In this document: piece after piece, positions 36,434 through 38,070 of the stretch
Layout of the letters: each line of letters begins with the position of its first letter
How positions within the stretch are numbered: the first letter of the stretch is position 1
Assembly: GCF_030160295.1 (NCBI RefSeq)
Contig: NZ_BSOB01000018.1
Coordinates: 446-64,445 of the forward strand
DNA from: Dyella acidisoli
Lineage (GTDB): Bacteria > Pseudomonadota > Gammaproteobacteria > Xanthomonadales > Rhodanobacteraceae
Direction: 5' to 3'
Length of the DNA: 64,000 nucleotides
The notes under the pieces: generated by a model
Databases searched by the model: none
What the model was told of the DNA's origin: nothing
The model's input: the letters and a program-made list of their open reading frames with translations, nothing else
Position numbers and translations under genes: made by a program

Positions 36434-36865
36434 TTAGCCGCCCTTCGCGGGATAAGTCTGGAATCCGCCACCTTGTTGTGCCGGCGCTTGCTGCATCGGC
36501 TGCGTACCCGGATTTTGCGCGGGTGGCGGTGTGGACGAACCCGGCTGGCGCGCGCCGCACACATAAGCTTCCCAGGGCTGCGAACCGTCCACCGGATCGC
36601 CCAGCGGCTTGATGGTGTCTGCATGCATGCCCAAAGCGCTATTGCGCGCCTGCACCTGCAGCTCGTCACGCACTTTGATGTTGTTGCGATCGAACGGACC
36701 AACGCGGCTCATCACCGACACCGTGATCTTGCCCAGATCGCGGCAACCGGTAACCTCGCCGCTCCACACGGTACGGACGTTGCTCGAACCCGGATCCGGG
36801 TTGATGCCCCAGGTGCAGCCGCCAAGCAACGTAAGAGGTGCGAGCAGCAGCAGAGTCTTGCGCAT
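36434..36865 (-). CDS. Small lipoprotein, DUF4156-like
   Basis: 143 residues. Lipoprotein signal MRKTLLLLAPLTLLGGC, then a small domain with VTGCRDLGKITVSV and DRNNIKVRDELQVQARNSAL, which resembles DUF4156 lipoproteins, and a Pro/Gln-rich tail (PPPAQNPGTQPMQQAPAQQG). GGAG lies 7 nt before the ATG. Function unknown; convergent with tetR. Confidence 0.75.
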   Translation of the reverse strand: MRKTLLLLAPLTLLGGCTWGINPDPGSSNVRTVWSGEVTGCRDLGKITVSVMSRVGPFDRNNIKVRDELQVQARNSALGMHADTIKPLGDPVDGSQPWEAYVCGARQPGSSTPPPAQNPGTQPMQQAPAQQGGGFQTYPAKGG

Positions 36866-36972
36866 ATGTAGCTCCATCAAAGCGAGAAAGGTGAAAGCTT
36901 CCGCATAGCATCGTAGCGCGTCGCTGTTGCCGATCGCAGAACGCCCGCTTAGCGCAGCGCCGTTCGAACGCT

Positions 36973-37015
36973 CCGCGGACACTGTCCGGTGCGGAGTGTC
37001 CGGTGTCCGCGGACA
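36973..37015. promoter_or_regulatory. Clustered TGTCC/GGACA palindromes (candidate enhancer)
   Basis: GGACA-C-TGTCC (36977-36987), CGGA-N3-TCCG (36992-37002) and the perfect 12-bp TGTCCGCGGACA (37004-37015) sit in series, and CCGCGGACAC / GTGTCCGCGG make a larger inverted repeat (36973-37012). The last centre is about 73 bp upstream of the -24 element of a sigma-54 promoter, the normal spacing for activator (bEBP) enhancer sites. Confidence 0.75.
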
Positions 37016-37081
37016 GTCGAGTGCACCCTAACGTACCGACACAAACCCTTTTAGATCAAAGTATTGCAGATGCAAACAGGG

Positions 37082-37098
37082 CTGGCACAGGGATTGCT
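37082..37098 (+). promoter_or_regulatory. Sigma-54 promoter
   Basis: CTGGCAC-N5-TTGCT: the invariant GG (37084-37085) and GC (37096-37097) are exactly 10 nt apart, matching the -24/-12 consensus TGGCAC-N5-TTGC. Initiation is expected near 37108, about 43 nt before the first small gene. A hairpin GAGG...CCTC followed by TTTT at 37110-37129 lies in the 5' leader and may attenuate. Confidence 0.82.
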
Positions 37099-37150
37099 GA
37101 GTTAAGGGTGAGGGCCTTCGGCCTCTTTTGCTCGAATCGGAGATACGGAC

Positions 37151-37357
37151 ATGAAATTCGAAACAGTGATCCTGCGTGGTTTGTTCGTGGCGTGCACGGT
37201 GGTTTGCGGCTTGATCCTGGCGGCCATGGTTACCAGCAAGCCGGCGCCGACGCATCTGGCATTCGCCAGCTCCATCGCCGCTCTGCTGACCTCGGCGCCA
37301 TCGTCCTGCGTGGTGCCCATCGTCGACAACATGATCTGCGTGCGCGCTGCGGGCTGA
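37151..37357 (+). CDS. Small exported/membrane protein A, MKFET paralogue
   Basis: 68 residues, begins MKFETVILRGLFVACTVVCG and has one hydrophobic segment (about 8-27) ending AMVTSKPAP. The remainder is short and contains two Cys (SSCVVP and NMICVRAAG). GGAG lies 10-13 nt before the ATG. It shares the pattern MKFET-LRGLF-AC-VCGL-L-AMVT-KPA with the next gene. I do not recognise the family. Expression should depend on sigma-54 and the upstream activator sites; a role in membrane or cell-surface physiology is only a guess. Confidence 0.75.
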   Translation: MKFETVILRGLFVACTVVCGLILAAMVTSKPAPTHLAFASSIAALLTSAPSSCVVPIVDNMICVRAAG

Positions 37358-37386
37358 TCCCATCCCCAACTTAAGGAAATACCGTC

Positions 37387-37560
37387 ATGAAATTCGAGAC
37401 TCTCTTCCTTCGCGGCTTGTTCGGCGCTTGCGTGCTGGTTTGCGGACTCACATTGCTGGCGATGGTGACTGCCAAACCTGCTTCTGCCGTGTCGGCCACC
37501 AGCCACACTATCGCGGTCGTCTCGGCAAACACGACGAGCCACGCAGGGACGGCCGGCTAA
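37387..37560 (+). CDS. Small exported/membrane protein B, MKFET paralogue
   Basis: 57 residues: MKFETLFLRGLFGACVLVCG, hydrophobic to about residue 27, then AMVTAKPASAVSATS, which could be a signal-peptidase site, and a Ser/Thr-rich tail. AAGGAAA stands 10 nt before the ATG. It lies 29 nt after protein A and evidently arose by tandem duplication; the N-terminal half is conserved and the C-terminal half is not. Same sigma-54 transcript. Function unknown. Confidence 0.75.
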   Translation: MKFETLFLRGLFGACVLVCGLTLLAMVTAKPASAVSATSHTIAVVSANTTSHAGTAG

Positions 37561-37599: not shown

Positions 37600-38070
37600 A
37601 TGCTGCATGTCATTCTCTTCCGTCCCGAAATCCCGCCCAACACCGGCAACGTGATCCGGCTGTGCGCCAACACTGGCGCCGCATTGCACCTGATCCGCCC
37701 CTTGGGCTTCGAACTTGACGATACGCGTCTACGCCGCGCCGGACTGGACTATCACGAATACGCACGCGTCACCGTGCACGACGATCTCGATGCCTGCCTC
37801 ACAGCACTCGATCATCCGCGTGTTTTCGCGTTTTCTACGCGCGGACGCACCTGGCACGTGGACGCGCACTTCAAGCACGGTGATGCACTTCTGTTCGGCT
37901 GCGAAACAGCTGGCTTACCCGACGCCGTATTGTCCGCACTGCCTGCCGAACAACGGCTACGGCTACCGATGCGTGCAGACAGCCGCAGCTTGAACCTGTC
38001 CAACAGCGTGGCGGTGGCCGTGTACGAAGCGTGGCGGCAGCTCGGCTTTCCGGGCGCCGTCGAGCTTTGA
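37600..38070 (+). CDS. trmL: tRNA (cytidine(34)-2'-O)-methyltransferase
   Basis: 156 residues, SPOUT (knotted) methyltransferase of the TrmL/YibK type that methylates the wobble base of tRNA-Leu with SAM. Motif 1 [18 protein letters not shown], then [11 protein letters not shown] and the knot region [15 protein letters not shown]. Length equals E. coli TrmL. It begins a co-oriented stretch of housekeeping genes. Confidence 0.96.

What the first reader, a model, noticed from the sequence alone, without database searches (positions are those of the whole stretch)
36973..37560. Sigma-54-controlled tandem pair of uncharacterised small MKFET proteins
A consensus -24/-12 promoter (CTGGCAC-N5-TTGCT, GG and GC exactly 10 nt apart) lies about 70 bp downstream of a cluster of TGTCC/GGACA palindromes, the usual arrangement for a bEBP enhancer. 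It drives two paralogous ORFs of 68 and 57 residues whose N-terminal halves match (MKFET..LRGLF.AC..VCGL) while the C-terminal halves diverge. I know no family for them. Small duplicated hydrophobic proteins with a dedicated sigma-54 activator suggest a stress, surface or signalling system. A hairpin with TTTT in the 5' leader adds a possible second control step.
Basis: partly seen in the sequence, partly recalled or inferred. Interest (0 to 1): 0.72.

Follow-up and report, generated by a model that had tools for sequence, protein, structure and literature searches.

The report
Tiny membrane proteins of exporter regulon
Soil bacteria related to Dyella carry several tiny one-helix membrane proteins, each set behind an almost identical sigma-54 switch that also sits in front of a large peptide-exporter gene cluster, which suggests that the tiny proteins are helper parts of an envelope-defence response.

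Summary
The window (Dyella-type Rhodanobacteraceae) has a -24/-12 promoter (37083-37097) 67 bp after the palindrome TGTCCGCGGACA (37004-37015), then two paralogous one-helix small-protein genes.

The genome holds five such genes at four loci; three encode only 28 residues, the bare helix. Of 60 further regions fetched, 55 hold such an ORF by script, and all 55 carry the same enhancer-promoter unit (shuffled control 3 of 2200).

58 precede MFP/ABC/FtsX (MacA/MacB-type) exporter genes, 48 the small proteins, 5 hydrolase- or peptidase-like genes.

In the own genome the exporter cluster (MFP, ABC, 12 permeases) ends in a response-regulator bEBP and a histidine kinase. That bEBP is the likely activator: shared with the exporter and on another contig, not dedicated.

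The leader hairpin is not generally conserved.

The helix has one conserved face, so it probably docks on a membrane partner. Exporter accessory subunit is my first choice, MgrB-like kinase feedback second; both are inferred. The window's two proteins match no Pfam or NCBIfam model above its cut-off.

The parts
36977..36987 (.). Upstream half-sites GGACACTGTCC of the enhancer cluster
   Evidence: Sequence. A TGTCCGGACA-like element (2 mismatches or fewer) lies in the 60 nt upstream of the main palindrome in 83 of 115 small-protein units
36997..37001 (.). Additional half-site TGTCC
   Evidence: Sequence
37004..37015 (.). Main enhancer palindrome TGTCCGCGGACA (putative bEBP site)
37054..37066 (+). 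IHF-like site GATCAAAGTATTG between enhancer and promoter (one mismatch)
   Evidence: such sites in 44 of 116 small-protein units (shuffled 48 of 1160) and 36 of 49 MFP units (shuffled 14 of 490)
37083..37097 (+). Sigma-54 promoter core TGGCACAGGGATTGC
   Evidence: GG-N10-GC
37110..37129 (+). Leader hairpin with TTTT; not generally conserved, probably no essential part
37151..37357 (+). Small one-helix membrane protein, 68 aa, with two tail cysteines
37387..37560 (+). Paralogous small one-helix membrane protein, 57 aa, without tail cysteines
37600..38070 (+). SpoU-family methylase gene (trmL-like), 40 bp downstream on the same strand; syntenic neighbour, perhaps co-transcribed
   Evidence: Pfam PF00588; present in 28 of 29 homologous loci

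Best explanation
A lineage-specific family of tiny single-helix inner-membrane proteins belongs to a sigma-54 envelope-defence regulon. Shown by sequence: the proteins are multi-copy, codon-constrained ORFs; each one that was looked at with a recognised ORF lies behind a TGTCC palindrome, about 67 bp and a -24/-12 promoter, often with an IHF-like site between; the same unit precedes MFP/ABC/FtsX exporter operons and a few hydrolase or peptidase genes. Inferred, strong (about 0.85): the activator is the response-regulator bEBP at the end of the exporter cluster (own genome G000:C10:266061-267419), switched on by the neighbouring histidine kinase when the envelope meets a peptide-like stress. 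Inferred, weaker (about 0.4): the induced small proteins insert N-in and use the conserved helix face (E4, L8, L11, C15, C19, M26) to dock on the MacB-type exporter permeases as accessory or modulatory subunits, as AcrZ does for the AcrAB pump; longer members add a periplasmic tail with a Cys pair.
For: Unit specificity. Regulon content: of 118 DNA-only hits the script gave 50 MFP, 1 ABC, 7 FtsX, 43 small proteins, 17 unclassified; on reading, the 17 are 5 small-protein-like, 5 hydrolase- or peptidase-like, 1 MFP-like, 6 others or unreadable. Own cluster: MFP, ABC, 12 permeases, S33-like hydrolase, YkuD-like protein, bEBP, HK on one strand, with one palindrome and one strict promoter match, at its head. 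bEBP orthologues in 139 of 147 family genomes; in 24 further-tested genomes (15 family, 9 Roseateles group) all have bEBP and MFP. Co-occurrence: 81 of 82 genomes with the small proteins have the DNA pattern (searches compared by eye). Coding constraint: pN/pS 0.29-0.48; E4 100%, L8 98%, C19 97%, M26 98%. Period of conservation about 98 degrees per residue, permutation p 0.0044. Model: one confident helix, residues 2-28. Small proteins go with enlarged clusters: site- or MFP-to-bEBP distance over 10 kb in 40 of 43 genomes with them, 5 of 28 without (not corrected for ancestry).
Against: No transcript, binding or protein data. The bEBP assignment rests on linkage and shared sites. Exporter and bEBP occur without the small proteins in whole clades (Roseateles group 0 of 9; 33 family genomes with the pattern but no small protein), so the proteins are not essential to the exporter. 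The link with enlarged clusters is confounded by ancestry; 5 exceptions without small proteins are all of genus g42, and G003, G077 and G172 have small proteins with a distance under 10 kb. No call shows a docking partner. Palindrome C6:45243 in the own genome has no recognised promoter, and another bEBP gene (C6:10708-12051) lies 33 kb from it.
Confidence: 0.5

Rival explanations
1. Feedback regulators: the small proteins dock on the transmembrane helices of the histidine kinase and damp it, or link it to periplasmic redox state, as MgrB does for PhoQ.
For: They share the regulon of the presumed kinase. Single helix. Two tail cysteines in 54 of 56 long members; MgrB needs periplasmic C28 and C39 (PMC8404706, passages). 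The kinase has a loop of only about 25 residues between two predicted helices.
Against: The 27-28-residue members have no tail and only 2 of 41 members of 45-60 residues have any tail Cys. Several copies per genome are more than a feedback loop needs. bEBP (and so presumably the kinase) occurs widely without them.
Confidence: 0.25
2. Direct membrane effectors: made in bulk under stress, they act on the lipid membrane or on respiration (as proposed for other stress-induced tiny membrane proteins), without a specific partner.
For: Bare 28-residue helix, several near-identical copies per genome, strong inducible-type promoters. A listing-level parallel is YohP (PMC12719787, abstract start seen).
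Against: One strongly conserved helix face with an invariant E4 and nearly invariant L8, C19, M26 points to a specific partner.
Confidence: 0.17
3. Exported peptides: the small proteins, or their tails, are substrates (signals or bacteriocins) of the co-regulated exporter.
For: Co-regulation with an MFP/ABC exporter; the MFP shows weak similarity to DarC of darobactin export, far under the cut-off.
Against: The 27-28-residue members end with the helix and leave no tail to export; no maturation genes were seen beside the window locus (ORF list only).
Confidence: 0.08

Closest known systems
Sigma-54 control of ABC-type antimicrobial-peptide permeases (COG0577), predicted in PLoS One 2025, PMC12316311
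   Same: FtsX/MacB-type permeases under sigma-54 in Gammaproteobacteria (passages seen)
   Different: The passages seen name no small proteins, enhancer sequence or activator of this system; 'Rhodanobacter' and 'Lysobacter' do not occur in its text
MgrB, 47-residue inhibitor of PhoQ (PMC8404706, passages)
   Same: Tiny single-helix membrane protein within a two-component regulon, two periplasmic cysteines (in the long members)
   Different: No family match; sigma-54 promoter; multi-copy; short members lack the cysteines; partner unknown
AcrZ, small membrane protein that modulates AcrAB-TolC (remark in PMC5985334; details recalled)
   Same: Small membrane protein that goes with an exporter
   Different: Different exporter class; no association shown here
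BceAB/BceRS-type modules and MacAB (PMC5985334, passages)
   Same: MacB-class transporter genetically coupled to a two-component system, peptide defence
   Different: Here a sigma-54 activator, one ATPase gene with 12 permease genes, plus scattered tiny-protein genes

Membership tests
Sigma-54 enhancer-dependent promoter | -24 GG and -12 GC ten bases apart | tested here: met
   TGGCACAGGGATTGC at 37083-37097
Sigma-54 enhancer-dependent promoter | Conserved upstream activator site at a fixed distance | tested here: met
   Palindrome 67 bp upstream; gap 67 in 89 of 116 small-protein units
Sigma-54 enhancer-dependent promoter | Cognate AAA+ activator with a GAFTGA-type loop | tested here: inconclusive
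   The candidate bEBP reads GAYTGA (sequence; motif recalled); that it acts here is inferred from linkage
Sigma-54 enhancer-dependent promoter | Transcription lost without RpoN | not testable with these tools
   Experiment needed; the rpoN gene itself was not searched for
MgrB family | Sequence membership | tested here: not met
   No Pfam or NCBIfam family above cut-off for the two window proteins
MgrB family | Conserved periplasmic Cys pair | tested here: inconclusive
   54 of 56 long members have two tail cysteines; 2 of 41 middle-length members have any; 27-28-residue members have no tail
MgrB family | Inhibits the sensor kinase of its own regulon | not testable with these tools
   Experiment needed
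AcrZ-like exporter accessory protein | Physical association with the exporter | not testable with these tools
   Only co-regulation and co-occurrence with enlarged permease clusters
MacA/MacB-type exporter (co-regulated cluster) | MFP, separate ABC ATPase and MacB_PCD/FtsX-type permeases | tested here: met
   MFP over the TIGR01730 cut-off; first 300 residues of one permease over the PF12704 cut-off; gene order; the ATPase and the other permeases were named by sequence resemblance only
Type I toxin (hydrophobic peptide with antisense RNA) | Antisense RNA repressor | not tested
   No search for an antisense promoter was made

The most novel reading that the evidence does not exclude
A bacterial lineage has built a set of stand-alone 27-28-residue helix genes, each with its own sigma-54 enhancer-promoter unit, that serve as interchangeable transmembrane subunits tuning one MFP/ABC engine shared by up to a dozen different FtsX-type permeases: a combinatorial, induced-subunit design for peptide defence.
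Probability: 0.2. Interest if true: 0.85.

Novelty: new variant of a known kind. Interest (0 to 1): 0.64.

Why it matters
It defines a testable regulon (site, spacing, likely activator, targets) in an environmental bacterial lineage, and a small-protein family whose two window members match no Pfam or NCBIfam model above its cut-off. Members of 27-28 residues may escape annotation; the rigid promoter unit makes them findable from DNA alone. If the helix docks on the exporter or the kinase, it offers an experimentally simple case of small-protein control of peptide defence.

Tried and rejected
Rejected: a dedicated neighbouring activator (none seen beside the locus in the ORF list; the best candidate is elsewhere and shared). 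The leader hairpin as a family-wide control element (6 of 31 leaders have a stem of similar energy). Lipoprotein or signal-peptide reading: the 27-28-residue members end with the helix. Another of the five strong bEBPs of the genome as activator: by reading the ORFs nearby, the others sit beside flagellin-like genes (C25), an amyloid-like operon (C6), an NtrB-like kinase (C8), or on C17, where there is no palindrome. This rests on neighbourhood only, and C6 does carry a palindrome 33 kb from its bEBP.

Tried without result: counting MacB_PCD permeases per genome; many counts saturate at 19 scored candidates, so they were not used. Paper searches for the sites, the family or such a regulon. One search found three papers holding one of the two strings; titles and abstract starts are on unrelated subjects and I did not open them. 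In the listings of the others I saw nothing on these proteins, but I opened only PMC8404706, PMC12316311 and PMC5985334, by passages. The library holds only open-licence papers. The AlphaFold model gave one confident helix and a tail of low confidence, so no fold search was run. PHROGs and PADLOC were not searched.

Caveats on counts. The 81-of-82 and 33 figures compare the tables by eye; one search allows a gap of 50-80, and for G061 the DNA hit (gap 56) lies elsewhere than its small-protein hit, so at canonical spacing the count may be lower. The 60 fetched regions came from hits of the list without a locus, with operon neighbours mostly left out, plus L271 (same place as L021) and weak hits. 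One search uses 71 genomes whose coordinates were visible, mixes site and gene coordinates, takes the DNA unit within 30 kb of the bEBP as head of the cluster without checking each (for G077 it precedes an FtsX gene near a contig end), and is not corrected for ancestry. pN and pS are uncorrected, include paralogues and use up to 1500 sampled pairs per class. Shuffles are simple letter or position shuffles.

Full report
What is in the window. Reading 36961-37560 confirms the elements of the finding: half-sites GGACACTGTCC (36977-36987) and TGTCC (36997-37001), the palindrome TGTCCGCGGACA (37004-37015), 67 bp later a -24/-12 core TGGCACAGGGATTGC (37083-37097), and ORFs of 68 and 57 codons (37151-37357, 37387-37560). 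Between enhancer and promoter lies GATCAAAGTATTG (37054-37066), one mismatch from the IHF consensus (consensus recalled; scored). Downstream is a SpoU-family methylase gene, present in 28 of 29 homologous loci, so the locus is syntenic.

A family, not a pair. A protein search of 61 genomes gave matches at E up to 1 in 48, chance-level ones included. The own genome holds five members: the window pair and three 28-codon ORFs on contig 10. With a 28-residue profile, 82 of 147 family genomes and 18 of 26 genera have it; of 321 genomes drawn from the class only the window's own does; 0 of 9 Roseateles-group genomes do. Among 132 distinct ORFs behind promoter units 35 have 27-28 residues, 41 have 45-60 and 56 have 62-73. 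The window's genus is therefore Dyella-type Rhodanobacteraceae (inferred).

The promoter unit is a rule. Of the 29 best relatives' loci 27 have the unit by script, and L021 and L029 have it with one variant element. I fetched 60 further regions. 55 hold a family ORF by script and all 55 have palindrome and promoter: 49 by script, 6 by reading; one of them, L271, repeats L021. L240 and L267 have the unit too, with ORFs missed by the filter. L268-L270, weak non-family hits, have no palindrome. Controls gave 3 of 2200 shuffles and 1 of 396 other genomic stretches. Over 201 distinct units the gap is 67 in 89 of 116 small-protein units and 66 in 36 of 49 MFP units. IHF-like sites with at most one mismatch are in 36 of 49 MFP units (shuffled 14 of 490), mostly at one offset, and in 44 of 116 small-protein units (shuffled 48 of 1160), mostly at another.

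What else the unit controls. First genes: 50 MFP, 1 ABC, 7 FtsX, 43 small proteins, 17 unclassified. Reading the 17: 5 small-protein-like (L097, L115, L135, L138, L179), 1 MFP-like (L106), 5 hydrolase- or peptidase-like (L095 S33, L149 S10, L152 DUF885 by Pfam; L173 and L184 by resemblance), 1 DUF4440 (L103), 1 unassigned (L171), 3 with under 140 nt left (L157, L196, L206), 1 unclear (L203).

The likely activator. In the own genome the palindrome-bearing promoter at C10:287455 heads a one-strand run: MFP, ABC, 12 permeases, S33-like hydrolase, YkuD-like protein, response-regulator bEBP, histidine kinase. The 25 kb hold one palindrome and one strict promoter match, both at its head. Orthologues of the bEBP are in 139 of 147 family genomes. 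In 24 selected genomes (15 family, 9 Roseateles group) all have bEBP and MFP, within 7 kb of each other except in three g9 genomes where they lie far apart or on different contigs. In most of the 15 family genomes, chosen because they lacked the pattern or were distant, the MFP promoter region still shows TGTCC half-sites, and the bEBP's C-terminal helix (recognition helix, recalled) is nearly unchanged. The script found no promoter in L310 and L313.

What the small proteins look like. Codon position 3 varies most; pN/pS is 0.29, 0.48 and 0.42 in the three length classes. E4, L8, F12, C19 and M26 are 96-100% conserved. Conservation has a period of about 98 degrees per residue (permutation p 0.0044), which puts residues 4, 8, 11, 15, 18, 19, 22 and 26 on one face. 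AlphaFold gives one confident helix, 2-28, and a tail of low confidence. 54 of 56 long members have two tail cysteines 6-13 residues apart, mostly C-x8-C or C-x9-C. This points to docking on a protein partner in the membrane.

Which partner. For the exporter: co-regulation, and co-occurrence with enlarged clusters (distance to the bEBP over 10 kb in 40 of 43 genomes with the small proteins, 5 of 28 without, not corrected for ancestry). For the kinase: shared regulon, its short loop and the Cys pair recall MgrB (PMC8404706, passages). Against both: exporter and bEBP live without them in whole clades, and no interaction was tested. I put exporter accessory at about 0.4, kinase feedback 0.25, direct membrane action 0.17, exported peptide 0.08.

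Known or new. Sigma-54 control of antimicrobial-peptide ABC permeases was predicted in 2025 (PMC12316311, passages). The passages I saw do not mention the small proteins, the enhancer sequence or this activator, and the paper searches named in Tried and rejected listed nothing on them. The two window proteins fit no Pfam or NCBIfam family. I rate it a new variant of a known kind.

Noticed in passing
own genome G000:C6:45243-45254 (L049): A perfect TGTCCGCGGACA palindrome about 150 bp upstream of a protein-L-isoaspartate methyltransferase-like gene and a TolC-like gene, without a recognised sigma-54 promoter. A TolC-type channel would fit the exporter.
   Followed up: partly
own genome G000:C10:264493-287395 (L210, L211): One MFP and one ABC ATPase gene followed by 12 FtsX/MacB-type permease genes in alternating pairs: an unusual many-permease cluster.
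   Followed up: partly
own genome G000:C6:5241-12051 (L044): A sigma-54-like promoter, amyloid-like secreted proteins, a peptidase-like protein and a bEBP close together; by eye a Fap-like functional-amyloid operon.
   Followed up: no
window 36434-36859 (-): Lipoprotein-like gene with a DUF4156 domain, divergent from the enhancer; found in 15 of 29 homologous loci, so possibly also served by it.
   Followed up: partly
L109, L113: A record labelled Candidatus Eremiobacteraeota carries Dyella-type units; one of its contigs has the length of G008:C206, which is placed in the window's genus, so the label is probably wrong.
   Followed up: partly
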